NCBI GenBank assembly: GCA_037447655.1
Contig: JBBHKE010001956.1
Coordinates: 329,257-393,256 of the forward strand
Source: Zygnema cylindricum
Lineage: Eukaryota > Streptophyta > Zygnematophyceae > Zygnematales > Zygnemataceae
Direction: 5' to 3'
DNA: 64,000 nt
The translations under genes were made by a program, and so were the position numbers. The notes below the pieces were generated by a model. It was given only the letters and a program-made list of their open reading frames with translations. It made no database searches and had not been told where the DNA came from. Positions 6,564 to 55,600 of the stretch are shown here, piece by piece. Within the stretch, counting starts at the first letter, position 1; every line of letters begins with the position of its first letter.

Positions 6564-8348
6564 ATGTCGTCCGTCAGTTTCGACAGTGTGAGAGAGAAGA
6601 ATGTCATGCAGCTCCGAAAAATCAACAGCTCTATCTTTCCGGTCCGATACCAGGAAAAGTTTTATAAGGACGCTATCAACTCCGGGGAATTCACCAAATT
6701 AGGTGCGACTCTCTCTCCCTCTCTCTCTCTCTCTTTCTCTGTGTCTGTCTCTTTCTCTCTCTGTCTTTGCCTCTCTATCTTTCTCTCTCTGTCAATGCCT
6801 CTCTCTCCCTCTCTCTCTCACACTACCTCCCTCCCTCCCTTTTTTTTCTCTCTCTCTCTCTCCCTCTCCCTCGTTATTTATGTCGATCAGGTTCTTTAAA
6901 CAGCCCCAAAAAAGAAATACTGGAAAACCACTTGTTTTTTTTCTATTTTTATTTTTATTTTTTTTCATTGCAATTTAATTCCGCTTTTAATCCGCATAAA
7001 GCAATCGAAAAGAATTAATTTTTTAGCGGATTTCATCTGTATTTCTTTTTTTTTCCCCCTTTTTTTTTCACAGCTTTTTACAGATTTTTTTCTATTCGCA
7101 CATTCTCAAAAAATCCCAAAATCTTCTCAAAAATATCCCAAAAAAATCCCAAAATATTCCATAAAATCGCCAAAAATCACCAAAAAATCCTCGGAAATCA
7201 CCGGAAAAATTCAAATTTTCATTCTGTTTCATCTTTATTTATTCGTTTACTTACCCACTTCATTTTTCTTTACTTTTCTTTAAATTTTTTCGCAGTTTTT
7301 TATGGAGATATATATGTGGGGGCGGTGGCCTGTCGGTTGGAAAAAAGGCTTTCGGGGGGACAGCGTTTATATATTATGACTTTGGGGGTTTTGGCGCCCT
7401 ATAGGAGGAGAGGAATTGGTAAGAAAACCCTATTTTTTTAATTCATTATTGTTACTATTATTTATTTGTTTTTACATGCTTTTTTTTTTGGGTTTACTAT
7501 TTTGGCGGTTTTGGCGCTGCCAAGGAGGAGAGGAATAGGGAAGAAAACCCTACTTGTTTGTTTTTTTTTTTTTTATTTTTTTTTATAGGTAATTTTTTGG
7601 TTGTTTGTGAGGATAATTTTTTTAGACGAAAATTGTGAGAGTTTGTCAACGACAAAGGGAGAATTTGAGGGTGTAATGTTAAAGGAGTGTTTTAGGGTTT
7701 TTTTTTTTTTCCGGGCGTAATGTTAAAGTAGGGTTTTAGGGTATTATGTTGAAAGTTGACGGTTTTTTTGTTACCTTCACTCTTTTTTTTACTGAATTGC
7801 TTTTTTTTTACTAAATTGCTTTTTTTTTTCAAGTTCATACTATTTTGGCAAATTGTACAACATATATATATATATTGTTGGAATTCACTTAAAGCATCTT
7901 TTAGTATTTATTTAGGTTCTACACTATTTTAGTGTCTTACTCGCTACGCTATTAGTCTTGTACTACGGTTTAGTGATTTTGTACTTTATTTAGTGGAATG
8001 TACATACCTTTGTTAGTATTGATTATTCTTACGTAGGAATCTTCTTAGACTTAGATTCCTTTTAGCATACCTAGATGTACCTTCCTAGGTTTCACTTGTT
8101 TAGTTGTACCTTCTAGAGCTTTTTCGGTTACCCTTTCTTTTCTGTCTTACTATAAGACTCCCATGTGTCTCATTGTAAATTCATCTAATCTAAAAGACAC
8201 TCAAACGACAAAACCTCTCACTTGTCATCTTGTTTTGTCGTTACACTCTTGTCTCTCTCTCTCTCTTGGACTTTTCTTTCTTTTGGCCTCTCCGAGCTAC
8301 CTTGTCCTATTAGCTTTTTCGGCCTCTTATGTCGTCACATTCAATAGG

Positions 8349-8438
<90 letters not shown>

Positions 8439-9154
8439 TTTTTTCGGATTGTTTTTTGATTTTTTCTTTTTTTCATCTTCAATTTTTTTTATATAACGTG
8501 TTGGGGATTTTTTTAGGATCAAAACTTCTCCATCACTCCCTCTCCCCTTCCCTCCCTCCCTCCTCCCTCCTCCCTCCTACTCCCTTTTTTGAATAGATAT
8601 GAATGTAATATATTATGCATATTTTTTGTTTTCGGTTCTTTCTAAGGATCAAAACTCCTCCAACACACTATATCCTCTCCCTCCCTCCCTTCCTTGTCCT
8701 CTCTCTCTCTCCCCCCCTCGCCCTCTCCCTGTTGTTTATATTTTGAACATATTCTTTATATTTTATGTAGTACAAACAAATTTTGTGTTGGGGATTCTTA
8801 GGATCAAAACTTCTCCTACATACTATCGACCTCCCGGCCAACCTTTCTCCCTCTCTCTCCCTCTCCCTCTCTCTCTTCCTATTAAATATATGCTGTATGT
8901 ATTATATGTATATCTTATAAACTGTTTTGGGATTTTCAGGATCAAAACTTCTCCAGCATGTTATCGACCTTTGTCAACAAGATTCTTCGATTCACGAAAT
9001 CTATCTTCACGTCCAAACCAATAACGAGGAGGCGATCGAGTTTTACGGAAAATTTGATTTTAAAATTACGGGAACCGTAACCAATTACTATCGGAGGATA
9101 GAACCGCCCGACTGTCATATTCTCGCAAAGGAGATAGTACATTCGAATGAATGA
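6564..9154 (+). CDS. NAA50: N-alpha-acetyltransferase 50 (NatE catalytic subunit), 3 exons
   Basis: GNAT-fold enzyme that acetylates protein N-termini using acetyl-CoA and is known as the NatE partner of NatA on ribosomes. Exons are 6564-6702, 7296-7418 and 8940-9154. Junctions are GT-AG and phase 1 at both introns, giving 158 aa, close to the Arabidopsis protein (about 164). The substrate loop FPVRY is at residues 25-29, the YIMTLG strand carries Tyr72, the acetyl-CoA loop RRRGIG is at 83-88, and IYLHVQ carries His111; Tyr72 and His111 match the catalytic pair described for human NAA50. The C-terminus holds the conserved NYYRRIEP stretch. The family FGF motif reads FDF here. The ATG at 6564 follows a pyrimidine-rich leader and opens a family-like N-terminus. 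Edges of exons 2 and 3 are duplicated in flanking DNA (see echo entries). Confidence 0.93.
7503..7553 (+). repeat. Echo of NAA50 exon 2 3' edge (dead donor)
   Basis: About 50 bp repeating 7383-7433, which spans the exon 2/intron 2 junction, 120 bp downstream. Shared words include GGTTTTGGCGC, AGGAGGAGAGGAAT and AAGAAAACCCTA. The donor GGTAAG has become GGGAAG, so the copy cannot act as a GT donor. Confidence 0.8.
7554..8345. other. NAA50 intron 2, AT-rich part
   Basis: T-rich intron sequence with words such as TTTTAGGGTTTT. A short 98-codon frame at 8163-8459 runs into the AT microsatellite and is not supported as coding. Confidence 0.4.
8349..8434. repeat. (AT)n microsatellite, about 86 bp
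   Basis: Uninterrupted alternating TA in NAA50 intron 2. It is likely to be length-polymorphic and cruciform-prone. Confidence 0.95.
8500..8838 (+). repeat. Three echoes of the NAA50 intron 2/exon 3 acceptor
   Basis: The true acceptor is AG at 8938-8939 followed by GATCAAAACTTCTCC. Copies of the same junction occur with AG at 8515-8516, 8645-8646 and 8800-8801, spaced about 130-155 bp and separated by CT microsatellite. All three keep the AG. The third also keeps TACTATCGACCT, matching TGTTATCGACCT in the exon. The frame decays after the shared part, so they look like decoy acceptors rather than exons. Confidence 0.85.
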
Positions 9155-9840
9155 GAGACGGAGAGGGAGAGGGAGAGAGGGGAAGAGAGGGAGATGGAGT
9201 CAATACATTCCTAACGAACTTATTATCGTTGGGAAAAACCGCCTAACTGTCTCGTCCTTGCGAGAGAGAGAGAGAGAGTGAGAGTGAGAAAGAGAGGGAG
9301 AGATAGAGAGAGAGAGAGAGAGTACATTTTGAGTAGCAAAGAAAAATAAAGAGAGGAAGTGGGGGAGGGGGAGTGAGAGAGCGAGAGAGGGAGAGGGAGG
9401 AGGAGAGGGAGTTACCGCATTCTTAACAGATAATTATCAAAGAATAAACTGTCCAACTGTCACGTCCCCACAAGAGATTGTAGATTTCGAGTAACAAGCA
9501 AAAAAAAAATTGAGCGAGGAAGAGAGAAAGGGAGGGAGAGGAATAGCGGGAGGCGCAGGCGGAGAGGGAGAGTGAGATGGAGAGGGAGAGGGAGATGAAG
9601 AGGGAGAGGGAGATGACGAGGGAGAGGGATTTGGTACATTCTTTGTACCATCCAAAAAAAGCAGAGACATACACAGAAGAGAGTGGAGGGAAAGGGAGAG
9701 AGGTTGGAGGTAGAGGGAGAGGGAGAGAGAGGGAGAGAGATGAAATGTGGCAAGTTAATGTGCGGCAACAATTTTTTGGTAGATTAGATTTCACTAATAA
9801 TTACGTTCGATAGAAAGTTCCTAATTCTCACATATGACAT
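9155..9840 (+). repeat. GA-rich NAA50 3' flank with degenerate exon 3 copies
   Basis: GA microsatellite is interrupted by decayed copies of the NAA50 exon 3 end. They lie at about 9205-9245 (CCGCCTAACTGTC against CCGCCCGACTGTC), 9425-9500 (AACTGTCACGTCCC and GAGATTGTAGATTTCGAGTAA against GAGATAGTACATTCGAATGA), and 9770-9840 (a longer decayed match to the segment encoding the last strand). Part of this is probably 3' UTR. Confidence 0.65.
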
Positions 9841-9981: not shown

Positions 9982-10013
<32 letters not shown>

Positions 10014-10209: not shown

Positions 10210-13200
10210 ATGTTGTTATTAGTCAAGTTTTAAAAAAGGGGCCAGATAAATTAAAAATTACGATGGTAAACCATCTGAGTCCGGGGTTATAAAAAGGGTG
10301 GCATGGCCAAAACTGAAAAACTACCAGCAGGGGAATAAAAAAAAAAACGAGAACACAAAACGAAAAGAAAACATCAAGGAAAATAAAAGCACCCAAACTC
10401 AAAATGAAAAGCATGGCAATTGACAAAACCATAACTACAACCCCAACCCCAACTCAATTAAATAACTACGAAAAGCAACCCCGTAAGTCTCCCTGGCCCA
10501 GGGGAGCACGTTGAGGGAGTTCCGGAACACAGCGACGATCCATAACCGCAATAGCCGATCGAAGGAGTATAGAAGCCTGCACTCCTTGTAAAGCCACAGA
10601 TAAGCGTTGCATTGCAACACCCAGACAACCAAAGATCTCCACCGCCATCGGAATAAAGTCATCCATAGGGTCTTGGTGGGCATAATTAGGGAGGCCAAGG
10701 CGAAACCGAAGGGCGGTGGTGAACTGAGCAGGTGAGAATCGGAGAGTGGACAAAATAGGTGTAGCGAAAAGCCAAGACCCAGAACCAGGTCCACCACAAG
10801 AGAGAAGACGGGCACGCGAAGAATCAGAGGGAAGCGCCTTGAGAAGCTTGGATTTAATGGCAGCGACAACCTGATCGGAACTAGATTCCTGGACAGGCTC
10901 AATGGATTTTGTAACAAGGGTGGAGAGAATCGGCACATCCATTAGGGCATGGGGAGGAAGAGAATCGGCACATCCATTAGGGCATGGGGAGGAAGAGAAC
11001 GTGACGCGTCCAATAGAGACCGCTAGAAGGTGAACACATCGTGTGAAACCCGGGGGACAACGGTAGCTAGAACGGGGGTGTCTCCACCCAAGAAACGTGA
11101 AACAAGAGTAGAGGCAATAAGGCACCAACTTCCCAAATAGACAGCGAGAGCAACACGAGCAGTCCATAATAGACCCAACCCCCCAGTAGAGACAGGGAGG
11201 ATGCCTGAATGCGGACCGAGGGCCCAGACTCGCTATCGAAAGCCCCACGACCTAAGAGAGTGTGGAGGATATCCATGAGGCGATCGTCAAAAGCCAGAGA
11301 GGGAGGAGACAAACGTTGAGGTAGGAGGGGAAGTACGAGTAAAGTAAGAAGGGCGGTGGGGAAAACACCTAGTTAACATAGCAAAATCCACTTGGGGATC
11401 GGGAAGGTGAGAAAGGTCGTCCACTCGGGCCAGATCAGTCTGTAAAACATCGTGAAGGAATTGGGTCACGAAAGTATCCGAACCAAGGGGGCAACCAAGC
11501 ACACGAATGCCATCGGAGGGAGAAGGGGTTTGAAAACCAGGAGTAAAAGCAAGTGGAATATCTTGAGGAGACCAAATAACACACTTCGAAGCCTGGACTG
11601 AAAGTTTGAGTTCCGCTAAATGTTCCTTGAAAAAATCATATGCCAATACGACGTGTTCTCTAGGCCCAATAATATGCGTATCATCTGCAACCGAAGGGAA
11701 AAGGCAAAAAGGGAAGGTGGTTGCGGAAGCACGAAGGGCCCAATAATGGGCGAGGGCGAACAAAGGTCTGACGAGAGGGTTGCCTTGGCGAGTGCCAGTC
11801 GCAGAGGAGGGAGGAATGAGATCACCGTCGGCCGAGAAGGAAAGTGTGCTTGTCAAAGAAAAGAAAGCCCCAACAAAGGGGAATAATTGGACAATTGGAG
11901 CTGGAGCCGCCATAAGCTCTGAAAAAATCATGTTTCGATCCACCTAATTGAACGCATTGGAAACATCGACCCGAAGGACCAACCAATCCGGATGTACATC
12001 CAACAAAGCCCTAATCCCGTGGACCACGGCCTCACAACCTCCTCTCGTGGCCACTCCAAACTGATGAGGAGAGAAATAGTCATGGAAAGCTGGTGAGAGC
12101 TGGAGACATATCACACGAGCCACCAATCTATATAAAACCTCTCCCACGACAATAGGGCGGATCCCACCATTAGGTTTGGCGACTGCCACAAGACGAGACG
12201 CCGTGAGAAGATCACAAATCTAAGGGGGCACATCCTCACTAGCAATAAGAGAACGGACTCGAAAAAACGCATCGAACCCTCGGGCACCCGATTCAAGGGG
12301 CAAAACATTGCGAAACAACTCATACACATTGCCCGAGCCCCCCCCCCCGCTAAAAAGTGAGGAGAAGAGCTAAGGGCCTTAATAAAAACCTCCTGATCTA
12401 AAGTAAAACTCTCAAAAGGCTCAAATGCGTGGATGGAAGGGGTTAAAGGGGAAGGTGCAGGGGGGTGGAGAGCTCGAAGGACCTCAATAGTGGAAGAATA
12501 TCGGGGGGTAGGGGTGAATGGCTGTAGGGCCCGAACCGCTTAAGAAAGCTCACCAACACTGCCCAAGTGAATTGCTCGACGATAAGAGGCCGGGACATGT
12601 GATGGCCTAGGTGGGCGACGTGGTATGAAAGAGGTGCTCGATACCCGATCCTCATGCTCGGCGTGGAGGGCCTTCCAGTAACCACGAAGGAATCGGCGAC
12701 AACGCGCCATAGTTTCTCTAGCCCCACTGCCTCCGCCAGGACCTGGAAGGACTAGGTACCAGAGAGAGAACATAAGAAGAAGGTGTCAAGAAGCAATGTC
12801 CGCCGGGTTTGAAGAAATGTGGGACATGGGGAGGTGGAGGGCATCTTATACTATTGTCCTCACGGCCATAGGAATACGGGTGTACAATCGCGGGCGGGTG
12901 GCTCCCAAATCATAAGCCCCCAAAACATCTAACTCACGGAGGAAATTCCAGAATTCTAGTCCTCATGTGTGGGGCCGGACTGGAGTGTGGTTGATGACGA
13001 TTGGGGAGAGGTGATAGACGAAGGACCACCCAGGGATATACAATGTCGACAACTCCGTGTATGAAGGGAAATACCGGCCCCAACGCAAAAAGGTTGTGAC
13101 ACCCAAGACATTCTAAACGCCTAGAGGCTGGTTTACGAGGTTTGGGTGGAGGTGGGGGAGGGAGAAGGGAAAAAAAAGGGCTTCCAGACATGGTCAATAT

Positions 13201-13315: not shown

Positions 13316-14466
13316 ATTTTTTCCGTCCGTCCGCAGTATGGACAGCTGTACGGCTAGCACAATGTAACGGTACCGTCCGTACCGCCATACGGATTGCATA
13401 ATCTTACATTGCCAGTTGTCGGTGTGCAGACCACCGTACGGTTGACATACTCTAACATTGCCAACCGTCGGTGTGCAGAGCGCCATACGGTTGGCGAAAC
13501 CTAACATTGCCACCCGTCGGTGGCAGACAGCCGTACGGATGGCGTAATTTAACTCTGCCGTTCGTCGCTGTGTAGAACGCCGTACGGATGGCGTAATTTA
13601 ACGTTGACGTGCGTCGTGTGCAAACCGCCGTACGGATGGCGTAATGTATTATTGCCAACCGTCGTTGTGCAGACCGCGCACGGTTGGCACAATGTAAAGT
13701 TGCCAACCGTCGAAGGCCGCCGTGCCGCTGGCAGAATGTACACCGCGAATCGTTATTAGAGTATATAAATCTAATTTGGGTTCCTAAAATTTGAGTTTTT
13801 TTCCTAAATAGGATACATGGTTTTATTTTTTCCTTCACGTTAATTAAGGTAGCGTATTGAATAACGTAAAAAATGAAAGTACAATAAGATCTAAATAGTG
13901 TGGTGTACGGTCGATGTCAGACCGTACATAAATGTACCTTTTAAAGTGAAAATTTAACAAAAAATGAATTAAATCAGATGCGCAAGCATAGGAACGTGCA
14001 CTCAAAAAACGGAATTAGTCTGACAAGTAAATTAGTCTGACATGTACGGAAAAATAAATTTCACGACGGCGTACGATTTCTAATATTTGTACGAATACAT
14101 ATGTTAATGTATATAATCGTACGGAGAATATTTAATTTCTGTTTTTCCCAAATTAGCATTAAGCCGAAATTAAAATACACCTTTTAAAAAAAAAAAAAAT
14201 CTTAATTAGCATCAATTACAGTAAATTACCTTCAACCCTATTTAAACTTTGACACTATTAACGATTCGCGGTGTAACGTTGTCTTGCGATCGTCCGCAGT
14301 ACGGACCGCTTTACCGCTGGCACAACGTGACGCTGCCGTGCGTCAGCGGTACAGACCGCCGAACCGCTAGCACAACTGACGTTGCCATGCGTCACGTGAC
14401 GTTGCCATGCGTCAGCGGTACAGACCGCCGTACTGCTGGCACAACGTGACGTTGCCGTACGTCCGG
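13316..14466. repeat. 50-bp tandem array interrupted by a MITE
   Basis: About seven degenerate units from 13316 to 13738 and about four more from 14276 to 14466. A unit begins TGCCAACCGTCGGTGTGCAG and ends near GTACGGATGGCGTAATGTAAC. The two blocks are one array split by the element at 13739-14275. Confidence 0.85.
13739..14275. mobile_element. TIR element, family C copy 1, inserted in the 50-bp array
   Basis: A 537-bp element with ends TACACCGCGAATCGTTATTA and the complement, finishing GATTCGCGGTGTA. Its interior is non-coding and AT-rich and carries GTGTGGTGTACGG near the middle. Removing it while keeping one TA restores a normal array unit (GCAGAATG-TA-ACGTTG), which shows a TA target-site duplication. 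Confidence 0.88.
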
Positions 14467-14491
14467 GGTACGGGCATGATAAACTTGACAG

Positions 14492-17532: not shown

Positions 17533-20500
17533 TCAAAGGTCCTTGAAAAAATTCATCATCATCTCACTCACTTGTACTGGTTCTTCTACATGTGGATAAT
17601 GACCGACTTTTGCGATAATTTCGTACTTTACGGTTCGAGTCGATTTCAAACATCTCGCTAACTCGTGAGCTTCTTCCAAAGGATTCGCAAAATCGGGATC
17701 TTTTTCGCCAAAAATAAAAAGGACAGGACAAGCTACATCGGCCGCAGCCTGAGAAAAGAAAAACGAAGAAAAAGAAATGAGTAAAACAGCTAAAAAATGC
17801 ATAAAACAGATAAGAAATGAGTAAAAACGGATAAAAAATGAGTAAAAACGGGAAAAAATGAGTAAAAATGATAGAAAAATTGACAGAAAATGAGCAAAAT
17901 GAATAAAACGAAGAGTAAAATGAGTGATATGAAAGAATAAACCGACATGTAATCCAAAGTAGGCAAAACCATCTAATAAAGAGTCTACACGGTCTAAACC
18001 ATCCAAAAAACGGTTAAATCCTCCAAAAAACGGTTAAAATTAGGAAAAAATTTCACCGAAATGGAAAGGACAGGACAAGTGACATCTGACGCAGCCTGAA
18101 AAAAAAAAATAATGATAAATAAATGAGTAAACGGATACAAACTATGCAAAAACGATAAAATATGATAAAAAAATGAGCACAATGAGTTAAAAACGAGTAA
18201 AATGAGCGAAATGATACAAAAAATCTGACAGAAAATCCAAAGTCCAAAGGCAAAACCACCCAAAAAACGGTTATATCCTCAAGAAAACAAGTAAATCCTC
18301 CAAAAAATGATTAAAATTGGAATCCACCTCGCAAAAATAAGAGGCCAGGAGAAGTCACATCTGATGCAGCTTGGAAACTAACAAAATGCTTAAGAAAAAA
18401 ATGAGTAAAATTGATAAAACATGACTAAAAAAGTAAAATGACAAAAAACGAGGAAAAGGATAAACAAATGCCATCAGAAATCCGAAACTTCAAACTGTCT
18501 GAAAAAAGGGCCAAAACCATCCAAAACCAGTCAAAATGATTCAAAAACTGGACAAACCAACTCAAGAACCAGTCAAAGCTTTCAAACTTCCCTCCAAAAA
18601 CAGTCAAATATTACCTCAAAACAGTCAAATTTCTACCTCGAAAACACCCAAATCCTACCCAGAAACACCCAACGTCTTTTGAAGCCACACATTCCTCTGT
18701 ATACTTCTTTCCATTTTCATTTCCCTTCCTTTATATACCTCGAAAACGGGTTTTTTGCTCCCTCGACCAAATTCTGCGACGGCCCACAATCGACCGTTTT
18801 CATGTAAAGAAGCTCTCATTGCCGACTCATATTCCAAAATATCTTCCGGAGGTTTCGATTTAAAAAGAGATTTAAAATAAGTAATCCAAGCGGAAAGTCC
18901 CCACGGCCAGGCGAATAGAATATAACTGAGAGGTCTAAACCAAAAGTCCTGAGGAAAAAAGGAAAAAGGAGAAAGAAAAAAAGAAAAAAAAAATCCCTGT
19001 TCAAAACCCTGAAACAATTCTAGAAAAATCTCAAAAAAAGGACCATAAGGCGAATAAAATGTAACTAAGCAGTCTGAACCAAAAGTCCTGAGAAAAAAAG
19101 GAAGAGAAAAAAAGAAAAGGAAAGGGAAAAATGAGGAAGGAGAAGGAGAAACGAGAAAGGAGAAAAAAAAAGAAAAAAGAAGAAAGACGAAAAAAGTGAA
19201 AGAAAAACGAGACACAATTTCTGTCTAAATCGTTTTTGATTTCTCTTTCAAATTTCCCTGTTCAAAACCCTGAAAAAAAACCCCAGAAAGGAGCCCTTAT
19301 AGGAAGAAGCGAGGGAGCAAGTGAGTGAGGGAAAGGGGAAGAGAGGGAGAGAAAAAGAGAGGGAGAGGGGGAGAGGGGAAGAGAGGGAGAGAGCGGGAGA
19401 TGGAAAAGGAGAGAGCAGGAGAGGGAGAGGGAGCGGGAGCGAGAGCGGGAGCGAGAGCGGGAGCGTGAGCAGGAGTAGGAGGGGGAGCTGGACAGGGAGC
19501 GAGAGAGGGAGAGGGAGAGAGAGAGGAAGAGGAAGTGGGAGAGGGAGAGGGAGAGGGAGAGGGAGAGGGAGAGGGAGAGAGAGCGGGAGAGGGGAGGGAG
19601 GGGGAGGGAGGGGGAGGGAGGGAGAGGGAGAGGGAGGGGGAGGGAGGGAGAAGGAGAGGGAAAGAAAGCGGGAGCGGGAGCGGGAGCGGGAGAGGGAGAG
19701 GGAGAGGGAGCAGGAGAGGGAGAGGGAGAGGGAGGAGGGGGAGGGAGAGGGAGAGGGAGAGGGAGCGGGAGAGGGAGAGGGAGAAGGAGAAGGAGAAGGA
19801 GAAGGAGAGGGAGGGGGAGGGGGAGAAAGAGAGGGAGGGGGAGTGGGGGGAGAGAGAGGGAGGGAGAGAGGGAGGGGGGGAGAGGGAGGGGGGAGAGGGA
19901 GGGAGGGAGAGGGGGAGGGAGGGAGGGAGGGGAGAGGGGAGAGGGGAGAGGGGAGAGGGGAGAGGGGGAGAGGTGGAGGGAGGGGGAGGGAGGGGGAGGG
20001 AGGGAGAGGGAGAGGGAGGGAGAGGGAGAGGGAGAGGGAGCAGGAGCGGGAGCGGGAGAAGGAGAGGGAGAGGGAGCAGGAGCGGGAGAGGGAGGGGGAG
20101 AGGGAGAAGGAAGGGGAGGGGGAGTGGGGGAGAGAGAGGGAGGGAGAGAGGGATGGAGGGAGGGAGGGAGGGGAGAAGAAGGGAGGGAGGGAGTGAGGGA
20201 GAGGGAGGGAGGGAGGGAGGGAGGGGGGGGAAGGGGGAGAGGGAGGGAGGGAGAGGGGGAGGGAGGGAGGCAGGGAGGGGAGAGGGAGAGGGAGAGGGAG
20301 AGGGAGAGGGAGAGGGAGAGGGAGAGAGAGGGGGAGAGAGAGGGAGAGGGAGAGGGAGAGGGAGAGGGAGAGGGAGAGGGAGAGGGAGAGGGGGGAGGGG
20401 AGGGGGGGGAAGGGGGGGGAGGGGAGGGAGAGGGAGAAGGAGAGGGAGAGGGAGAGGGAGAGGGAGAGGGAGAGGGAACTGAAAAAAATGTAGAAATAAG

Positions 20501-21108
20501 TAAGTCACTAAGTAAAACCAAAATATGAAAAGAGACAGTACCGTGGGTAAATCTCGAGCGACCGGAGCGAGTCCTATCACCGCCTTCACGAGAGCCGGTT
20601 GCATCGCGGCAACTTTCAGTAAAGATCCTCTGGTTATTAAAAAACAAAAATAAAAAAGATTTAAAAATCTAAACAAGATTTAAAAAATCTAAAGCATAAA
20701 AGTAACGTTCAAAAGTAATCAAGAAAGTCAAAATCAAAATTAATCATGAAGTTTCCAATCAATCAACAAGTTTATGACTAAGGATAGAGTTCACTTCTGA
20801 CTATAATAAAGTAAACAGAGACGCGAAATACCCTGAAAGAGAGTTCCCGACGAGAACCACCGGTTTCCCAACTCCTAAATACTTCAAAATTACAGCCACG
20901 TCATTGGCCACGTCTAACGGAGTATAAGATGGAAAACCGGCGGAAGACTCTCCTTGACCTCGAAGGTCAGCCAAAAGAACTCGGTGTCCCTGTAACAAAT
21001 AAACAAGTAAACATATCAATAAGTGAAACTCTATATACATATACATATAAAATACATATAATATAATATATATTTATATGCAACATTAGCGTGAGTATTT
21101 CATATATA

Positions 21109-21164
<56 letters not shown>

Positions 21165-22923
21165 CATAAAACTACATAAATGTGTGCTGATAAATACACA
21201 TTAAAATTAAAGTCCTGCATATAAATTCAGTAAAAAGTATATCTATATATTTTTCAAAAATCCCATTTGTCCAAAAGATAACAATTAGTAAGCGTGAAAA
21301 TCACAACTGGAGACGAAAGAAATGAAGAGGCCTAACATGCGTACCGAACTTCCGAGGAAGCCACATAAAAAAAGAGAAGGATAAAAAAAGAGTTTCTCAA
21401 GCTTCCATTAGAAAAATAAAACACACAATTGCTGAAAAAACACCACAGAGCCTTGCCCAGTTCATTAACCAGAATAAGCTTACCAGGAAAAAACTTGGAA
21501 AAGATGTTAAGAAGCTCGAAAATCATAGAGGAGAACAACATCGTATATTGATATTAGGATTAGTGTTTTTTTGCCTCTTCAACTTGTATTTCTCCATGAA
21601 CGATTGTCAAATTTTAGTTCAGAACAAACCAACCAAACGGAATAACTCTCACCTTCAAATCGTTATATTACAAAGAAAAATCCAAGGTAAAATAATGAGT
21701 TTTAGAGGCAAAAAAAAATCACGGTTCAAAGAACGAAGGAGTCGAGAGAAACCAAATATCATTCTAAAGATATAGCTTCCTGCTTGTCAGGCTAAGATTT
21801 ATTAAAAAATATATCTACATATATATATACACGTTATGGAACAGCAACCTATGGAACAGTACGGTATGGTACGGTATGGAACAGCATGGTATGGACCGGT
21901 ACGGTACGGCATGGTACGGTACAGAAGGATACAATATGACACGGTCAAAGAGACACGTGTTACTCACAGCAGCATGGAGAAGTGGCGCAAGAAAGCGATA
22001 AGTTTGGCGAAAATCGCCCATTCCCGGGACCATAAGGATGGTTTCCGAAGCTCCGGAGGGGTTTCTGGGAACTCCACTATCCTCCACTGCTATGGCTCCG
22101 GCAGAGTGGATAGCCACATCCTGGAAATAGAAAAATAGCAAAATTAGGGTTTTGAAGAGAGGAGAAAGGGAAAGGAAGTTTTGCAAAGAATAGCAAAATT
22201 AGGGTTTGAAGAAAGTGAAGTGGAAGAAAAGAAAGGTTTTGAAGGACAGAAAGAAAGATGGAAAGGAAATCTTGTGAAAACTAGCAAAAAAAGGTTTTTT
22301 CAAGAAGGAAAAAAGAAAGGAGAGCAGATAAGGGAGAAAAAAAAATAGCAAGAATACGAGTTTAAGAGAAAAAAACAAGTAAGGAAAAAACAAAAGAAAG
22401 GGCGAGAAAAAAGAAAGGAAAGCAAAGAAAACGAAGGGAAATCCTGTAAAAAATAACAAAATATAGGACTTTGAAGAAAAAGAAGAAAGAGCAAAAAAAG
22501 GAAAGAAAAAAAGACAGAAGAAAAAAGAAAAAAGGAAAAGGAGAGAAGGAAAAAGAAAAAAAAAATCGCCTTTTGAAACTAAAACACTTTTTTGGAAAGA
22601 TTTGCACATCGTGCAAACAAAAAAAAAAAATTTGAAAAAAAAATAAAAAAAAATTAACTGCTTTTGCAAGTAAATCTTTCCTCTGACAGATCTTGCAGAT
22701 TTTTTCTGAAAAAGTAAAGATTGTGAAATGATCGACGGGGTTATTTTCTCTTTTCATTTGTCTATTTTTTTTTCTTCTTTTTGTCTATTTTTTGTCCGTT
22801 TCTGTCTTCTAAGTTTTGTTTATTTTGTCTGTTTCATCTGTTTTGTGTGTCTTTTTCTTTATTTTGTCTGATCCAGTTTTTTGTCGTCTAGCAATGAATC
22901 TTCAATCAGAAAAAAAAGAGAAG

Positions 22924-40219: not shown

Positions 40220-43200
40220 TGTTCGAGCTTTACAAGAGGAGGAATTGCGGGAAGAACTTATCATTTATGTCGGAGACCGATGTTGTCGAGCCATGCGCCC
40301 GGCCCGGACTTGGAAATTTCGAGAAATAACCGAAAGTCAAGCTCTCGTGGGAAAATTAGAAACGTTTGTCGAAATTCGACGAATTCTTCGGCTTAGAGAA
40401 GTGCACAAAGGACAAAAATTGGACAAATCTTCGTTGTCTAATGGGGCGCCGGATATTTGGGATATTCCGGCGGAAAAAGAGGCTCCATCGACTTTCGAGA
40501 ATCGAGAAACGACGTTTAAAGTACCGAATACGGAGACGTTGGAGGATTGCGAAGGTAAAAATAAAATATAAAAATAGAGGGAGAGGGAGAGGGAGAGGGA
40601 GTTGGAGTACTCATTGCGAAGGTAAAAGCGAAATACAAAAACAGAGGGAGAGGGAGAGGGAGAGGGAGAGGGAGTCGGAGTTTTCATTGCGAAGGTAGAA
40701 GCAAAATACAAATACAAAGGGAGAGAGAGGGAGAGGGAATTGGAGAGGGAGCTGGAGTTTTGAAGGGGAGGGCTGTGATTTTAGAATTTTGATAGGGTTT
40801 TGATTGTTTTAGGTTTCGAATTGGATATTGTACGGTTTTGCTGTTGTTGTTTGAAATTATGTAAAATTCTGGAATTTCGGAATTGAATTTTCACGATTCG
40901 AATTTGATTTTTTTTTTTCGGACTTGAAATTTTACGACTTGAATGAATTTTTATTCGGATTTTTTTTTTTTCTTTTTTTCTCCAGAATGCGACGGAAGAG
41001 GAGGAGTTCCTTGTGGAGCTTGTTTGGGTGGGACTAAAGGGGGTATATGCAAGAAATGTGGAGGATTAGGGCAAGTCTTGGTTAATGGAGAACCTACCAG
41101 GTAATTAGTAAAACCCTGAAAACCCTAATATTTTTCTTCCCTTTTTTTCTGTATATACGATACATATATGTATGTATATATATGTATATATTTAGATGCA
41201 TATATGTATTTATGTCTATATGTACATAGTGATTTGCGGTGTAGTGTTGCTCATCGGGTGGTGAGTCACAGCCGATATGTCAACAACTAACGATTGATTA
41301 TCGACCCATTCAATTACCCATTCTATCGATTGTCGACCGATTCAATTACCAATATTATAGATTATCGAGATCTAGTTACCCATGTTATCGATTATCGACT
41401 GATCCAGTTACACATATTATCCATTATTGAGTGATTCGATTACCCATATTATTGATTATCGATCGATCTGGTTACCCGATATTATTGGCTGTTGATCAGC
41501 AATAAACTACTTCCCGTACCATTGCCAATAATCGATAACTATCGGCGATATAATTATCGGTACACTTGTACTATCGCACTGCGGTATACTAAGTAGCCAC
41601 AAAAGTAATATTTTTAAAGTAATAATTTTAAAAAACGTACCAAGAAAACGACTTCGAAGCCCCTCACCATCGGATTAACGTAAATAGAGACATCAGATTC
41701 ACAAAGAATATACCGAACTGCTCTGTACCGGCAAGGCAGTAACCGTACTTTGACTCACAAACTGTTTTGTAATTACATAGTAGATACCGTTCTCAGTTAC
41801 AAAACAGATACCGTTCTCAGTTACTGTTCAGTAGTAACAGAACAGTTTGCACAACATTTACTGTTGACTTTCTGTAGTTACAGAACAGTTTGAGAGATAG
41901 AGAGAAGGGGGAGGGGGAGGGGGAGGGAGGGAGAGAGGGAGAGAGAGGGAGGGGAGGGAGAGGGGAGGGAGGGAGGGAGAGAGGGAGGGAGAGGGAGAGG
42001 GAGAGGGAGAGAGGGAGAACAACAACAATTATACATTGCATATGGGTTTTGTAAGGTCCTATTATGTATTAAAAAAACAGTTATTATTGACCACTTTGAA
42101 CTTCTTTCTTTCCCTGAACATTTTGTAGAATCAGGAATATATGGCAGATGAAATATAATCTCCAAAATTTGCACTTTTAGGGTTTGTTTGGGTTTTTTGA
42201 GAAGTAAAAGTATATAAAAACTTCCCTAAATACTTGGTAATGTTGAGGAAGCTTTCAATGCTTTTGGATGAAAAAAAAAATATTTAACTATTTAACTATC
42301 TAAGTCTTTTAACTTTTTATTTATTCGAGTATTTACTTTTTAACTAGTGTCATATTTACTAGTGTTATATTCAACTATTCACCTAGTGTTATGTGCTCAC
42401 CACGGACTCCTCTCCCTCTCCCTCCCTGCCCCCCCTTTTCCAGGTGTGAGCTGTGTGAGGGGTCCGGCCAGAAGCTTTGTCCTGTCTGCAGCTCGGTGAA
42501 AGAGGTCCCTTGTTCCTTCTGTGGGGGGGAGGGAACGCTCCTCTCCCGAGAATATGTTGTAATCTCCTGGTGAGAACCGCCTCTGTTAAATTCTCCTGGA
42601 TTTGTTAAATTCGCCTGGATTTGTTAAACTCTCCTGGTTTTGTTGAATTCTCCTGGACAGCGAGTGACCCCATTTTTCTTAGTGGGGGAGAGGGGTGATT
42701 TTATCTTTTCCTGTCCTTTTTTTGTCCTTTTTTTGCACTTACATTCGCTTCTGGTCATCTCATGCTTTTCTCTTCTTCCCGCATCTTCTCCCAGTTTTGA
42801 CCACCAATTTTTCTCCCTCTCGATCTCCTTCTCCCTCACCCTCTCCACTCCCTCTCCCTTTCCCTCTCCCTCTCCCTCTCTGTCTCCCTCTCCCTCTCCC
42901 TCTCCTTCTCCCTCTCCCTCTCCCACTTCGAAGAATTTCTTTAATCTTCGTTTTCGAGGGTGCGTTTTCGGGCAGGATAAACATTGTTCCCAAAAAGTCA
43001 ACCATGAGGACCCTTTGACCATGATTCCTCCTCTCCCTCTCCCTCCTACATCTCCCTCTCTCTCCCTCTCCCTCCTACATCTCCCTCTCTCTCCCTCTCC
43101 CTCCTACATCTCCCTCTCTCTCCCTCTCCCTCCTACATCTCCCTCTCTCTCCCTCTACCTCTCCCTCTCACTCTGCCTCTCTTTCTCCCTCTCCCCCTCC

Positions 43201-43663
43201 TTCTCCCTCCCTCTCCCTCTCCCATTTTGAATAATTTCTCTTATCTTTTTGTGCGTTTTCGGGCAGGATTAACATTGTTTCTCAAAAAGTCAACCATGAG
43301 GACCCTTTGACCACGATTCCGGACGAGAAAATTTTTCGAATGCCTGGAAACGAAGTCCACAAAGGGGAAGATAATATTTTAAGTCCTTTTTACGACTCGG
43401 AGAGACCGGAAATACAAGATTTATCGACGGGATTATTTCAACATCGAGACAAAATAATGCCCTCGAATGCTCGAATCGTGAGAGAGAGACACGTCATTAA
43501 AGAGGTACCGATTATAAAATGTGTACTCGAGGAAAATGACCAATGTTTTTTGTTTTATTTGGTTGGGACGCGACGGTCGGTGTATCTCGAGAATTATCCG
43601 GGAAGGTGTTTACCGATATTTTGCGATTGTTGTAGTTGTTTTTTCGGGAATAAGTTTGTTTGA
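40220..43663 (+). CDS. SSUH2-like cysteine-rich (DnaJ-type zinc-ribbon) protein, 5' end missing
   Basis: Four exons were found: 40220-40554, 40986-41100, 42444-42569 and 43267-43663. Phases agree (2/1/2/2) and all introns are GT-AG, giving 323 aa without the start. The Ssu-2 homologue family is best known from animals, with a proposed chaperone-like role; the exact function is unclear. The first exon carries EEELREELIIYVGDRCC and later FKVPNTETLEDCEG, as in the family. Exons 2 and 3 hold the zinc-ribbon Cys pairs: ECDGRG, CGAC, CKKCGGLG, CELCEGSG, CPVC and CSFCGGEG. Exon 4 has ARIVRERHVIKEVP and then YLVGTRRSVYLENYP, the conserved C-terminal block, and ends CDCCSCFFGNKFV. An upstream exon ending in phase 2 is required. 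AATAAA follows at 43727. Exon edges are echoed in introns 1 and 3. Confidence 0.88.
40605..40755 (+). repeat. Echoes of the SSUH2 donor at 40555, in GA microsatellite
   Basis: The exon ends ATTGCGAAG then GTAAAA. The same junction recurs at 40613-40628 and 40686-40700 (ATTGCGAAGGTAAAA and ATTGCGAAGGTAGAA), each followed by AGAGGGAGAGGG repeats, with a period of about 70 bp. Both keep GT. Using them would read into TAA within 30 bases of the true junction. Confidence 0.88.
41225..41600. repeat. ATTATCGATCGATCNRGTTACCC repeats in SSUH2 intron 2
   Basis: Six or so units of about 50 bp built from ATTATCGAC, ATTCAATTACCCATATT and variants. The left side carries GCGGTGTAGTGTTG, which resembles MITE ends seen elsewhere in this window, so this may be a decayed element. 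Confidence 0.6.
41890..42020. repeat. GA tract in SSUH2 intron 2
   Basis: GGGAGAGAGGGA-type sequence. The same intron ends in a CT tract (42410-42440) before the acceptor, so the two could pair in the transcript. Confidence 0.7.
42575..42665 (+). repeat. Echoes of the SSUH2 exon 3 donor edge, about 20-bp period
   Basis: The exon ends AATCTCCTG before GTGAGA. Four copies of the edge follow: AATTCTCCTGGATTTGTTA, AATTCGCCTGGATTTGTTA, AACTCTCCTGGTTTTGTTG and AATTCTCCTGGACAG. None has a canonical GT directly after CTG. Confidence 0.8.
42930..43230 (+). repeat. Echo of the SSUH2 exon 4 acceptor plus CT repeats
   Basis: At 42950-43027 a near-identical copy of the acceptor and the first 50 bases of exon 4 (TTTTCGGGCAG then GATAAACATTGTT, AAAAAGTCAACCATGAGG) lies 293 bp upstream of the true site. 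AG is intact. The copy ends at CATGATTCC and passes into four units of a roughly 29-bp CT repeat containing CTCCTACATCTCC (43028-43145). Confidence 0.9.
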
Positions 43664-45667: not shown

Positions 45668-45880
45668 TGCTTTTCCTCCTGCACTATGCGACAGCTCCTA
45701 CTTCCCGTAGCCATGTACCTCCGGATCTCCTCTATTTCGTCTTTTCCTCTTGCACTACGCGACAGCTCCTACTTCCCGTAGCCATGAACCTCCGAATCTC
45801 CTCTATTTCGTCTTTTCCTCCTGCACTCCGCGACAACTCCTACTTCCCGTAGACATGTACCTCCGGATCTGGCCCGCGGC
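45668..45880. repeat. 71-bp tandem repeat, three copies
   Basis: The unit begins CTTTTCCTCCTGCACTATGC and contains GACAGCTCCTACTTCCCGTA and CCTCCGGATCTCC. It starts near 45670, 45741 and 45812, with the third copy incomplete. Confidence 0.85.
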
Positions 45881-48671: not shown

Positions 48672-48724
<53 letters not shown>

Positions 48725-48860
48725 GTTCTTATGGCTCTTTTTGTTTTCTATTGTAGTTTTTCAGTTTTGGGTCATGCCACCTCTTTTGTACCCTGGACTC
48801 AGATGGGTTACCATCGTGCTTCTTAATTTATCATGCTTTTACTTTATTCATTATATGTTA
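47222..48860 (+). pseudogene. Non-LTR-type reverse-transcriptase relic, copy 2 (5'-truncated)
   Basis: Begins inside the RT palm (FALAHYRALC), continues through SVVDDTHIIGP (YADD altered to VVDD) and NLSVQPSKCVIWSP, and is broken by a stop at 47600 and later frameshifts. The C-terminal half preserves a CACGRVLGPNGFHLLRCSYGG zinc-binding pattern (read across 47965-48030) and then AAQHVGVAARDAAKAKERDY and DFIPMAVEIFDCLGVAL, typical of the tail of this RT class. The 3' UTR matches copy 1 (TTTTCAGTTTTGG, GGACTCAGATGGTTTACCATCG-like). A poly-T run of about 54 lies at 48669-48722, where copy 1 has a shorter T/A-rich stretch. Confidence 0.82.
48669..48722. repeat. Poly-T run
   Basis: About 54 consecutive T in the 3' UTR of RT relic copy 2. 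Confidence 0.95.
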
Positions 48861-49948: not shown

Positions 49949-49972
49949 CCGTGCTGGTAGAGGGTCGATAAC

Positions 49973-50194
49973 TACACCGAGTATCGCTATTAGAGTTAAT
50001 GTTTCTTTTGCCACTTAAAACATCTTTTCTCTGTACACACTTGTCGGATTGTGGATCCGCCGGTTAAGATTGAAAGGTAACATTATCAGCTTCCGATTGG
50101 CGATCTCAAACTGAATATCCGACAAAAGTGTACGGAGAAAATATGTTTTAAGCGGCGAAAAAATACATTAACACTAATAGCGATTCACCGTGTA
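49973..50194. mobile_element. Fold-back MITE, family A copy 4
   Basis: 222 bp with ends TACACCGAGTATCGCTATTA and GCGATTCACCGTGTA and the ACATCTTTTCTCTGTACAC inner arms. It lies 24 bp from family B copy 2. Confidence 0.87.
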
Positions 50195-51683
50195 TCGTGG
50201 TGATTATTTTTTATAAGTATTTTTATTAACCTCGTACGATGGTACGGAATGGATTGTCATTTTTTTTTTAAAAGCCGCTCTCCTCCTCCAACCCCGCGAG
50301 ACACCTGCGTACTTTTTCCGTACTGCAATGCACCCAATATATCGCTATGGTTTTTGCTGGTACAGTACCACAACGATATATCGAGCTTCCTCACCGCCCC
50401 ATACTGTAGTTCTACGTAACGATATTGTTTTTTTTGCGATATGAAATCACCCATTAATCAACACTATTAATGGTTTGGCCTTGTAACGTGATATTTTTGA
50501 AGATCATTTGTTACGTTATTGTCAAAGATAAAAGGATGCCTTACGGCAGAGGTCACAATAGGGCACCTGAATCCGTACAATATCCATACAATATCCGTAC
50601 CTGACCGGTCGCGTCGGATTCGGAGCGAATTCGGATGCCAAATTTTGCGGGCCGGCCGGATTCGGGCGGGTGATTGAAAAATAAAATATATCGGGTACGG
50701 CTGGGTAAACAAAATACGAAAAAAAATGAAGGTTAATTGTACTTTGAACCACAAATTTTGTACTTATTCGGGTACCGTTAGTCGCGAGAAATAGAGTTTC
50801 GGTTAACTTTTTTTCCCGTAAAAGCGTACCGGGTAACAGTTTAGGAGCTTAGGAGGATAATGTCACATGACGCGGCCGGATTTCGGGTGTTCATATTTTG
50901 AAAAAAAATAAAAATGTCGGATTCGGGTATAAATATAATTTTGACTTTTGTGACCTCTGTCTTATGGTTAGGTTGAGCTGTCCCATAAGAAAAAGTACAT
51001 AAGCTAACGTACGACATTTCCCCAAATTCCGCCAGAAATCGCGGGTTGTCGCACTTTTGGAAGCTTCGTTAGATTCGCGCCGCTTCACAATCTTGACCAC
51101 AGTTCAAGTCATACGGTAATTTTGTTTTTTTGTGGACAAGATTGCTGGTCCGTACGCTAGCATTTTTGAAATGGTTGACCCGGGTCCGTTGGCAATTTCT
51201 TATTGGGCCACGATCTTGGTCGTTTCATTTAAGTTTCCAATGATTGGGCTTTTAAAGACTGTCCAGATTAGAATCGTACTAAAAAAATCGTACGAAAATA
51301 AGCTGCCGGTCATTGGAAAGACTTGTTGAAATCTCCACGTAAACGGCCTACTGCGGCGTAGCTCTAACTGATTGCCGGCATTTTTTAGGACCAATGAAAT
51401 TGCAGATCTTAAAAGATCCTCCCACGAGTTTGGAAGCTGGCATGTCAAGCCTGCAAGCTTGACAGTTGTCTAAATTCATAGTAATGGGTGACACGTGGCG
51501 TGAATTTGTTACTTGACCGACAGTAGTGTACACGTCTCGGTGTGATTTATTGTTTTTAGGTAATTATTATTATTACAGGAGGCAGGTTTGCGCTTCAAAA
51601 TATCCGGGCTGTCACATATTTGATGACGGCCAAAAGAACGGCCGTCAGCACGGCCGTTATAGTTCTGGTTATTTTTTCGATAC
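50195..51683. other. Intergenic DNA
   Basis: GC-variable sequence with CGTACGG words and a GATTCGGGC-type word repeated near 50620-50700 and 50878-50935. No gene was recognised. Confidence 0.4.
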
Positions 51684-51903
51684 TACACCCTGAATCGTTA
51701 TTAATGTTGAAGTATTTTTCGCCACTTAAGACATATTTTTTCCGTACACTTTTGTCCGATTTCCAATTTTAAACCGTCAATCGGAAGCTGAGAATCTTAA
51801 CTTTCAATCGCAACCTTCAGATATAGAAACCGACACGCGTGTACGAAGAAAAGTGTTTTAAGAGACTAAAAAAACATCAACACTAATAGCGATACACGGT
51901 GTA
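51684..51903. mobile_element. Fold-back MITE, family A copy 5
   Basis: 220 bp with ends TACACCCTGAATCGTTATTA and GCGATACACGGTGTA and inner arms around ACATATTTTTTCCGTACAC. Confidence 0.87.
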
Positions 51904-52634
51904 GTTTTTTCAATGTTGACGACGATCTTGACGACCTTTATTTCGCTGGACATTTCGACGAGTGATCGGAATCGTCCGATTCGCTCATTTCGATTGGGAC
52001 ATATCGCATGTTTTTGGACGCAAGAATATCCGCTCGTCGTACAATCCCAACTACCGTAGTAGAAATGACCAATCACGTAAAATATAAAGTACCGTACTGT
52101 AATTTTCTGGGATTCTATGGACGAATCGCGTAGAAGCCTATTATCCACGTGTCGCGTCTCATGGTAAGTGAGTTTTTGCGCTTCCCACCTTGAAATTTTC
52201 TCGAAGTCCATTATTGCATAGAGCGACGCACAAGGAACTGTCATACAAAAAAAAAGAACTTGTCGGCGACATTTAACGGTCGATAAAGATAAGCACATAA
52301 AATTTTAGCGGCCGGCAAAATGTCCAACGAAATTCTTACTTAGATACGCATTAGCTGGATGCCGATCCGTACAGATTCGAAAAGTCGAATGAAATTCCAA
52401 CAGGTCTAATCTGCCATCGCTTGTTAAAAGGACAACATCTTTTTTAAATTTCAACCACTCTGGTTCATTCTAAGGCATACTGGAGCCGTACAAAATGTCA
52501 AAATAAAAACCTCTTCTCTAGTTTCAGAGTCAAACCCTAATAGATGTGAATAGCGGATCTCCTTCACCTAAAACTGCCTCCATAGCCTTCGCTAAAAATC
52601 TTTTGTATAGGTGTGACGTGGCGAGTTCCCAGCC
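51904..52634. promoter_or_regulatory. 5' region of the LRR gene
   Basis: About 730 bp between the MITE and the predicted start codon. No core promoter element could be assigned with confidence. The minus-strand frame at 51858-52298 has no recognisable domain. Confidence 0.3.
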
Positions 52635-55600
52635 ATGGCGGCTATCATAGTCATCTCTACTGTTCTAATATTTGCGTGCCACGTGGCGCTCGTATCGGGA
52701 GTTTACAAGGGAGCCATGTCGAAGCCAGACAGTTCGTTTTTCCCTCCTTTACCCTTTTCTTCCCTCGCTATATGCCTGCAATCTTCTTCACACGTGCGAA
52801 ATGTCTTTCCAATTCGCAGGCCAATATTTGTATGCACACATTCTAAATTTCTTTGCAAGTAGGAGACCAATGTTTGTCTTTGCACGTGCTAAACGTCCTT
52901 CGTCTTCACACGCGTGAAATGAAAATGTCTTTTCGATCCGCCGACCAACTTTTGTCTTTACACGTGCGAAACGTGCTTCCTTTTACTCCTTTGACACGTC
53001 TCTCTGACACGCTGCTGTACTGTTGCTGCAGAGACGGCTCTGGAGGCGGTGAAGGCGGCTGCGGAGTACCCGGAAAATTTTCCCGAGATCATATGTGATG
53101 ACTACAATTTTTGGTGTGACAATTCCGGTCGCGTGACGGACATGTGAGCTCTCATCGAAACGTTTTTTTCAAGATTTTTGAGGGTTTTTGTGTCTTAAGG
53201 AGTTTTTTGGTTGTTCTGGGGTGTTTTAGGGTTTACTAGGGAGTTTTAGGGTTCACTAGGGTGTTTTAGGGTTTACTAGGGTATTTTAGGGCTTACTAGG
53301 GTATTTTAGGGCTTACTAGTGAGTTTTAGGGTTTTTAGGGTGTTTTAGGGTTCACTAGGGTGTTTTAGGGTTTACTAGGGTATTTTAGGGTTTTAGGGTT
53401 TTTAGGGGTTTAATTTCAACTATTCAAAAACGTATGGGAGGAGGGTGCAGAAATCTATTTGGTGTATAAAGAGAGAGGGGAGGGGGGAGGAGGGAAGGGG
53501 GTGGATGAGGGAGCTAGTTCAACAAACAATGGGGGAAGGGGGGTGCAGAGGTGCAGGTATCTAATTGGGGTATGTAGGAGGGAGAAGGAGGGGCAGAGGG
53601 GAGGGAAGGGGTGGGAGAGTATGAGGAATTCTGTTAGGAGAAAAAGGGGAGGGCGAATGAGGGGGGTTAGGGAGAAAATGGGGATTTAGTTAGGAAAGGA
53701 GCGGGATAGGTAGGTGGATGCGAAGGTGGAGGAACGAGATATTCAAGAGAGGGAGGCAAAAGGGGGAGAGGGGAGGGAGGATGGAATAAGGTGGTGAGAG
53801 AGAAAAGGAGACCTTATTAGGAGAGCGGGTAGAAATAGGGGAGTGGGGGAGGTGGGGGAAGAAGGTAAATCGTTTGGAGAGGGATGGGGAAGGTTGGAAG
53901 AGGAGGGGAGAGAGTGTGGCATCACATTAGGAGAGGGACGAGGGAAGAGGATGGAGAGAAAGGAGGGGGAGAAGGAAGGATCTCGCTAGGAGGAGATAGG
54001 AGATGCAAGACGAAAGGAGTTAGGGGAATGAGAGAACTTGTTAGGAGAGTGGGGGGGAGGGGGAAAAAAGAGGGTGGAGGGGCTGGATTTGTTAGGAAAA
54101 GGAGGAGGAAGTGAAAGGGGAAAAGGAACGGAGGAGAGGTGAGAGAGAATAGGAGATGATGTTAGGCGAGGGAGGGGAGGGGGGGACGGCGGGATGCAAA
54201 GATTGAGGAATTTTATTAAAGGAGTGATGGTGACGGTTGAGGGGTAGGGAGGGGAGGGAAAAGGGACGAGAGGAGGGAATGAGACACTTTTATAAAGAAG
54301 GGAGAGGGAGGGAGAGGGCGAGGAAGGAGAGGTAGAAGGGGGAAATAAAAGAACTTGATCGGCGAGGAAGTAAGGAAAAAAAAACAAAAAGATCGAGGGA
54401 ACTCGTTCAATGACCTGCAGGGTGGTGCAACCTCTTTGTTAGAGTATATCAATAAAGGAGGGTAGGGGGAGGGGTAAGGGGGGAGAGAGAACGAGCTAAC
54501 TCGTCCACTGGTCAATAGGAGGGCCTCCAAAGATATCTTTGGGAACATAAAATGGGGTTGGGTTGGGGGAGAAAATGAAGGATCTCATTGAATGACGTAT
54601 GCTTAGAGGGTGTAGGGATGTAGGGGGGGAGAGAATGAAGGATCTCATTGAATGACGTATGCTTGGAGGGGTGTAGGGATGTAGGGGGAGAGAATGAAGG
54701 ATCTCATTGAATGACGTATGCTTGGAGGGGTGTAGGGATATAGGGGGAGAGAAGGAAGGATCTCATTGAATGACGTATGCTTGGAGGGGTGGGGAGATTT
54801 AGGGGGAGAGAATGAGAGATCTCATTGAATGACGTATGCTTGTGGGGGTGGAGAGATATAGATGGAGAGAATGAAGGATCTCATTGAATGAGGTATGCTT
54901 GTGGGGGTGCAGAAATATAGGCGAGTTTGCATTTGGTGGGAGGATCGCGGAGGAGATTGGTAACCTTACACAATTGGAATACTTGTGAGTGAAAAAAACG
55001 ATGCAGGACGCATCTCATGCGCGAGAAGCAAAAGAAACGGCATAAATACTTAATTATAAGAGAGAATGGGCTTGCGTATGTTAAAATTTGTTGTTTTGTG
55101 TTTTTTTTTTCCTCTTTTTAAGTGACAAAGTACTCTAATTTTCTAGAGTATTTTTGCCACCACCTGTCAGTTAATAAAATTGGGGGGGGGGAAGAGTCAA
55201 ATGCATTAGTTAATACTTGAATCCAATGTAAACATGTTGATTAATGAGATGTTCGATAACATTTTTTAACATGGGCTTGCTAAACATTCAAGCCCAAATT
55301 TTTCTTTTGGTATAACCTTGTTGTGTACACTATTTAAGAGAACCTTTTGGGGGGGAGGGGGATATGGTGTGTTTGGGATGTCCGGTATCCCAGGGACCTC
55401 AATAAGAACGGGTTGAGTGGAAACATTCCATCGTCCATCGGTCAATTAAAGTTCCTCACATATTTGTAAGACACGTGACACTATGTTTATGTTATGCATC
55501 AACATTGGTCTTAATGGTTATGTTTGTGATGGAGGAAAAGCTGAGGGGGAGGGAAAGGATTGTGAACAAAAGTGCAATAATTATTTGTAATAAAAATACT

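What the first reader, a model, noticed from the sequence alone, without database searches (positions are those of the whole stretch)
6564..54984. Exon edges are echoed in neighbouring introns across five unrelated genes
In NAA50, the hydrolase, PLAC8, SSUH2 and the LRR gene, 20-100 bp segments spanning a splice junction recur as degenerate copies on the intron side, one to five times, usually in the same orientation and separated by GA/CT microsatellite. Both acceptors and donors are involved. The pattern suggests a genome-wide process in which introns grow by tandem duplication of junction-spanning DNA, followed by microsatellite expansion, leaving arrays of decoy splice sites. I do not know of a named description of this pattern.
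Basis: partly seen in the sequence, partly recalled or inferred. Interest (0 to 1): 0.88.

Follow-up and report, generated by a model that had tools for sequence, protein, structure and literature searches.

The report
Tandem copies of exon edges
In this probable green-alga genome, short stretches of DNA are often copied side by side, and when such a stretch crosses the end of an exon it leaves decoy copies of the splice site in the intron, as was described before in amphioxus under the name "mirages".

Summary
Five of 24 exon ends have strong same-strand copies in the adjacent flank (scores 42-72; best null score 20-25); exon centres have none and opposite-strand scores never exceed 22. A sixth, the SSUH2 donor, repeats 9 exon bases plus the intron start. 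The LRR array abuts its presumed acceptor without exon content that I can see. I found no PLAC8 gene.

It is not confined to this window: 7 of 82 exon ends in nine chaperonin loci are echoed (4 of the 7 in one locus), against 0 of 42 mid-exon tests. But intron interiors carry such copies too (4.3% of tiles elsewhere, 17.2% in the window's genes), and the NAA50 coding end is echoed in its 3' flank. Edges exceed interiors about 2-fold outside the window; slower decay of the constrained exon copy predicts 1.3-1.9-fold. GA/CT tracts are not generally involved.

Best reading: widespread local tandem duplication, conspicuous at exon edges because one copy stays under selection. A named precedent exists: amphioxus "mirages" (PMC3087553). 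A real preference for splice sites remains possible.

The parts
6564..9154 (+). NAA50 gene; exons 6564-6702, 7296-7418, 8940-9154
   Evidence: open frame across junctions; no gap at either junction against four homologues; Pfam PF00583 E 4e-19
7494..7585 (+). echo of the NAA50 exon 2 donor (45 exon bases plus 56 intron bases); decoy GT changed to GG
   Evidence: 77/103 identical columns; score 43 against null maximum 20
8489..8535 (+). echo 1 of the NAA50 exon 3 acceptor, AG kept
   Evidence: 40/48 identical columns
8609..8665 (+). echo 2 of the NAA50 exon 3 acceptor, AG kept, followed by CT tract
   Evidence: 46/62 identical columns
8784..8832 (+). echo 3 of the NAA50 exon 3 acceptor, AG kept, followed by CT tract
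   Evidence: 41/49 identical columns; best upstream match of the exon start scores 42 against null maximum 22
9212..9310 (+). echo 1 of the NAA50 coding 3' end, in the 3' flank, outside any known intron
   Evidence: 71/103 identical columns; exon part against the flank beats 1000 shuffles in a lenient scheme
9412..9543 (+). echo 2 of the NAA50 coding 3' end, in the 3' flank
   Evidence: 86/135 identical columns
17533..22120 (-). alpha/beta hydrolase gene; exons 22120-21968, 20989-20832, 20629-20542, 18948-18739, 17748-17533 (a first exon upstream not modelled)
   Evidence: open frame; Pfam PF12697 E 2e-21; a PDB esterase aligned across the exon 4/5 junction
18051..18153 (-). echo 1 of the hydrolase exon 5 acceptor, AG kept
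   Evidence: 84/107 identical columns
18305..18430 (-). echo 2 of the hydrolase exon 5 acceptor; AG one base further on
   Evidence: 96/134 identical columns
19048..19132 (-). echo of the hydrolase exon 4 acceptor, AG kept
   Evidence: 72/89 identical columns; score 50 against null maximum 21
40220..43663 (+).
   Evidence: open frame across the three junctions; no Pfam hit
40613..40761 (+). two tandem copies of the SSUH2 exon 1 donor (9 exon bases, intron start, GA tract); decoy GT kept in both
   Evidence: blastn 40546-40684 against 40613-40761, 82%; second copy 52/62 identical columns
42886..43028 (+). echo of the SSUH2 exon 4 acceptor with 54 exon bases, AG kept, followed by CT tract
   Evidence: 123/144 identical columns; score 72 against null maximum 25
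54562..54921 (+). minisatellite of about 60 bp x 6 abutting the presumed LRR acceptor; no exon content seen in the units (by eye)

Best explanation
The genome undergoes frequent local tandem duplication of DNA (copy offsets mostly about 45-400 bp) in non-coding sequence. Duplications wholly inside exons are removed by selection. Those that cross an exon boundary survive, because one intact junction remains next to the rest of the exon; the extra copy decays in the intron, or beyond the stop codon, as a decoy. The exon copy is held by selection, so such pairs stay recognisable longer than pairs of two neutral copies. SHOWN: direct tandem copies at edges and inside introns; none found in the mid-exon tests; an echo of a coding end in the 3' flank; recurrence in other genes. 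INFERRED: uniform placement, neutrality, and the molecular step (replication slippage, unequal exchange or break repair; not resolved here).
For: Same-strand copies (score 26 or more) at 12 of 102 splice edges, 374 of 6150 intron/flank interior tiles and 0 of 56 mid-exon tests; opposite strand 1 of 102, 84 of 6150 and 0 of 56. Outside the window 7 of 82 edges against 227 of 5297 tiles; a simulation that constrains only the exon copy gives a detection advantage of 1.3-1.9. Of 24,620 intron bases in 31 introns, 12.1% lie in direct duplications and none in inverted ones. The copies carry from 9 to 89 coding bases, so no fixed breakpoint shows. The NAA50 coding end is echoed in the 3' flank. Local direct-duplication clusters: 17 in the 64-kb window, 20 and 10 in two other 100-kb stretches. 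Spliced NAA50 aligns without a gap at its junctions to four homologues, so the decoys add nothing to the conserved protein.
Against: Edges exceed locus-matched pseudo-edges: pooled 12 against a mean of 6.4 (P 0.022) and 8 against 2.6 at score 36 (P 0.004); outside the window 7 against 2.95 (P 0.024) and 3 against 1.27 (P 0.13). The outside ratio of 2.0-2.4 is slightly above the simulated range. Against that, the window is where the pattern was noticed, interior copies in low-complexity DNA are masked, and 4 of the 7 outside cases lie in one locus. In 200 kb of random genome the opposite-strand rate is also high (95 against 146 of 2400), so the direct excess is clear in genes but weak there.
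Confidence: 0.7

Rival explanations
1. Splice junctions, or sequences beside them, are hotspots for tandem duplication (for example through transcription-linked breaks or R-loops), so introns grow mainly from their ends.
Against: Outside the window the excess is 2.0-2.4-fold, close to the 1.3-1.9 that slower decay predicts, 4 of the 7 cases are in one locus, and at score 36 it is not significant (P 0.13). A coding end without a known intron is echoed too.
Confidence: 0.19
2. GA/CT microsatellites drive it: the tracts break or stall replication and the repair duplicates the neighbouring exon edge.
For: By eye, four of seven window arrays carry GA or CT tracts between copies.
Against: Among interior copy pairs only 4 of 83 have such a run between copies, against 17% of random same-offset pairs; the hydrolase exon 5 array and the NAA50 donor lack them.
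Confidence: 0.06
3. Assembly artefact: collapsed or mis-joined reads made the copies.
For: Raw reads and depth were not available to me.
Against: Aligned copies in the window differ from the authentic sequence by 15-36% with indels and different spacers, far beyond read error, and the pattern recurs on other contigs.
Confidence: 0.01
4. Introner-like or transposed elements carrying splice sites.
For: NAA50 intron 2 does hold a dispersed repeat (window 7876-8352).
Against: The echoes contain the gene's own exon sequence and sit in tandem at that gene. In one search no match from elsewhere fell in the echo array, but only 40 of 294 candidates were scored; the dedicated searches did not complete.
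Confidence: 0.03

Closest known systems
Amphioxus 'mirages' (boundary-spanning minisatellites in Adh3 and in globin genes BflGb6 and BflGb9; PMC3087553, passages read; the original Adh paper, PMC117041, is not held)
   Same: Tandem duplications spanning an acceptor or donor, one to several copies, variable unit length, many decoys keeping AG/GT, seen in several genes, proposed to feed intron gain.
   Different: Here in a probable streptophyte alga; aligned copies in the window are 64-85% identical (81-100% in BflGb6 by that paper), several are flanked by GA/CT tracts, and a coding end is echoed too; length polymorphism could not be tested.
Intron gain by tandem genomic duplication (Rogers model, named in PMC3087553; potato RdRp case PMC4974935, seen only as a search listing with the start of its abstract)
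   Same: A duplication that includes splice-site-like sequence.
   Different: Here existing introns grow; I did not show that any intron is new.
Introners (PMC9860276, search listing with the start of its abstract)
   Same: A source of intronic sequence and splice sites.
   Different: Introners are dispersed copies of an element; these units carry each gene's own exon edge.

Membership tests
Mirage minisatellites | Tandem repeat unit spans an exon-intron boundary | tested here: met
   six splice edges in three genes; further cases outside the window, e.g. L033 and L034
Mirage minisatellites | Both 5' and 3' boundaries can be involved | tested here: met
   8 of 51 acceptors and 4 of 51 donors at score 26 or more
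Mirage minisatellites | Many copies keep AG/GT signals | tested here: met
   Window decoys: 6 of 7 acceptor copies keep AG at the aligned place (the seventh has AG one base on), 2 of 3 donor copies keep GT
Mirage minisatellites | Normal splicing of the mRNA is not disturbed | not testable with these tools
   No RNA reads; only that the spliced NAA50 frame has no gap at its junctions against homologues
Mirage minisatellites | Copy number differs between haplotypes or somatically | not testable with these tools
   One search showed no second place matching the NAA50 exons, with 40 of 294 candidates scored
Intron gain by tandem genomic duplication | The intron is absent from the orthologous position in relatives | not tested
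   No relative's gene structure was available
Introners | Near-identical elements in many unrelated introns | tested here: inconclusive
   One search scored 40 of 294 candidates; matches from elsewhere fell on a dispersed repeat and a TA tract, none on the echo array; dedicated searches unanswered

The most novel reading that the evidence does not exclude
In this alga splice junctions are preferred sites of tandem duplication, so introns lengthen from their ends and accumulate arrays of decoy splice sites; a mirage-type process would then act genome-wide in a lineage far from amphioxus and be a general, convergent route of intron growth and possibly intron birth.
Probability: 0.19. Interest if true: 0.75.

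Novelty: new member of a known kind. Interest (0 to 1): 0.42.

Why it matters
How introns lengthen is seldom visible. Here 12 of 102 sampled exon ends (7 of 82 outside the window) keep a readable copy of themselves in the intron, and in three window introns direct duplications make up 48-71% of the length. That gives a record for measuring intron growth, for studying how the spliceosome ignores near-perfect decoys, and for testing whether such duplications can found new introns. It also carries a pattern described in amphioxus to what is probably the plant lineage.

Tried and rejected
RNA bridging by GA runs near donors and CT runs near acceptors: both occur together in 1 of 30 introns, so rejected as a general device.

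De novo exon calling by codon usage found no more in the window than in its reverse (73 against 76 segments), dropped. A PLAC8 motif scan, motifs from memory, found nothing plausible.

Dropped rows and errors: the first SSUH2 donor copy, and five of eight realignments, returned a trivial self-match and were ignored. At one donor (L034) my edge caller had taken the first decoy (5262) instead of the likelier authentic site (5220); the echo holds for both (39 and 43). One search stopped with an error after its first table; the rest was run. Of 63 chaperonin matches I used 46; 17 lay outside the stretches fetched. Exon ends without an acceptable splice site, or too near the end of a locus, were dropped, leaving 82 of a possible 92. 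Splice-site weights were set by hand from general knowledge. Candidate ORFs of the random 200 kb were listed but not taken to Pfam.

Papers. PMC3087553, PMC11096116 and PMC10407611 were seen as passages only; I read no paper whole. I do not claim that the pattern is unreported in green plants.

Full report
WHERE IT IS. The window lies in a 352.8-Mb assembly of 2,689 contigs, without name. Its NAA50 protein is closest to an unnamed sequence (84%) and then to one labelled jgi/Mesen1 (70%), which I take to be Mesotaenium, so a zygnematophyte alga is likely. Size and contig count are near, not equal, to the published Zygnema cf. cylindricum assembly (359.8 Mb, 3,587 scaffolds; PMC11096116, passages). 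I do not claim identity.

GENE MODELS. Joining the proposed exons gives uninterrupted frames for NAA50 (3 exons), an alpha/beta hydrolase (5 exons, minus strand) and the SSUH2-like gene (4 exons). NAA50 has no gap at either junction against four homologues. A PDB esterase aligns across the hydrolase exon 4/5 junction.

THE ECHOES. Exon-side segments of 45 bases were compared with the adjacent kilobase. Five of 24 exon ends score 42-72, against 20-25 for the best of 28-36 comparisons with the other genes' flanks. None of 14 mid-exon tests exceeds its null on the same strand; two opposite-strand scores (22 and 19) exceed theirs by 1. Alignments show tandem units that run from inside the exon across the junction into the intron, carrying 9-71 exon bases at splice edges and 77-89 coding bases at the NAA50 stop codon. 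Window decoys keep AG in 6 of 7 acceptor copies (the seventh has AG a base further on) and GT in 2 of 3 donor copies; by hand-set weights the scores of those that kept it are close to, sometimes above, the authentic site.

BEYOND SPLICE SITES. The end of the NAA50 coding sequence is echoed twice in its 3' flank; the exon part beats 1000 shuffles in a lenient scheme (39 against 30), but barely in a strict one (27 against 26). Local direct duplications also occur where I know of no exon edge, e.g. 13323-13712, 31319-31557 and 45670-45870. The intron echoes therefore look like part of a wider habit.

ELSEWHERE IN THE GENOME. An independent family, the chaperonins (PF00118), was located and nine loci fetched. 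Of 82 exon ends, 7 are echoed at score 26 or more and 3 at 36 or more; none of 42 mid-exon tests is. The 7 lie in four of the nine loci, 4 of them in L033. Among the 36 edges set by a frame-consistent pair of splice sites, 3 are echoed. A fine case is L034: the exon end is followed by about four diverged units of roughly 43 bp, three of which begin with a donor-like GTGGGT. Of 31 introns, 9 hold direct duplications at blastn level: 6 of the 9 window introns and 3 of the 22 others, so the window is richer than the rest.

IS THE EDGE SPECIAL? Intron and flank tiles well away from exons carry same-strand copies at 4.3% outside and 17.2% inside the window's genes. Pooled edges exceed locus-matched pseudo-edges 12 to 6.4 (P 0.022), and 8 to 2.6 at the stricter threshold (P 0.004). 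Outside the window it is 7 to 2.95 (P 0.024) and 3 to 1.27 (P 0.13). A simulation in which only the exon copy is constrained gives a 1.3-1.9-fold detection advantage. In 200 kb of random sequence the opposite-strand rate is also high (95 against 146 of 2400), so strand bias is clear only in genes.

MICROSATELLITES. By eye, GA/CT tracts separate copies in four of seven window arrays, but a GA/CT run lies between only 4 of 83 interior copy pairs, against 17% of random pairs. I take them to be bystanders or a local feature.

WHAT IS KNOWN. Amphioxus genes carry the same anatomy under the name mirages. [quoted passage not shown] What is added here is a case in a probable plant-lineage alga with a first rate estimate (12 of 102 splice edges) and a comparison with intron interiors.

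LIMITS. No RNA, no second haplotype, no relative's genome. Few edges, and one gene family outside the window. Exon edges outside the window rest on profile matches and simple hand-set splice-site scores; at least one (L034) was first placed a unit too far.

Noticed in passing
7876-8352: NAA50 intron 2 contains a dispersed repeat of about 477 bp (starting TGTTGGAATTC, LTR-like by eye), up to 96% identical to copies on other contigs, with pairs about 5 kb apart on C1634, C917, C244 and C1808; part of this intron's growth is therefore a dispersed repeat, probably a transposable element.
   Followed up: partly
59729-64000: The LRR gene region holds larger (about 0.5-1 kb), diverged direct duplications that seem to carry LRR-like exons with their introns, perhaps the same duplication habit at larger scale.
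   Followed up: no
   Followed up: partly
17748 and its echoes 18051-18153 and 18305-18430 (-): Both hydrolase exon 5 echoes share bases that differ from the authentic exon (the first would read AASDVTCPVL against AAADVACPVL), so the decoys may preserve an older exon sequence.
   Followed up: no
467-691, 24457-24683, 28411-28637, 49970-50194, 51682-51906: A family of about 225-bp self-complementary repeats, hairpin or MITE-like, in both orientations.
   Followed up: no
10245-11765 and 47223-48832: Two related element fragments in opposite orientation, 80-94% identical in pieces, with reverse-transcriptase-like open frames by eye; 40 places in the genome were scored for a piece of it, itself included.
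   Followed up: no
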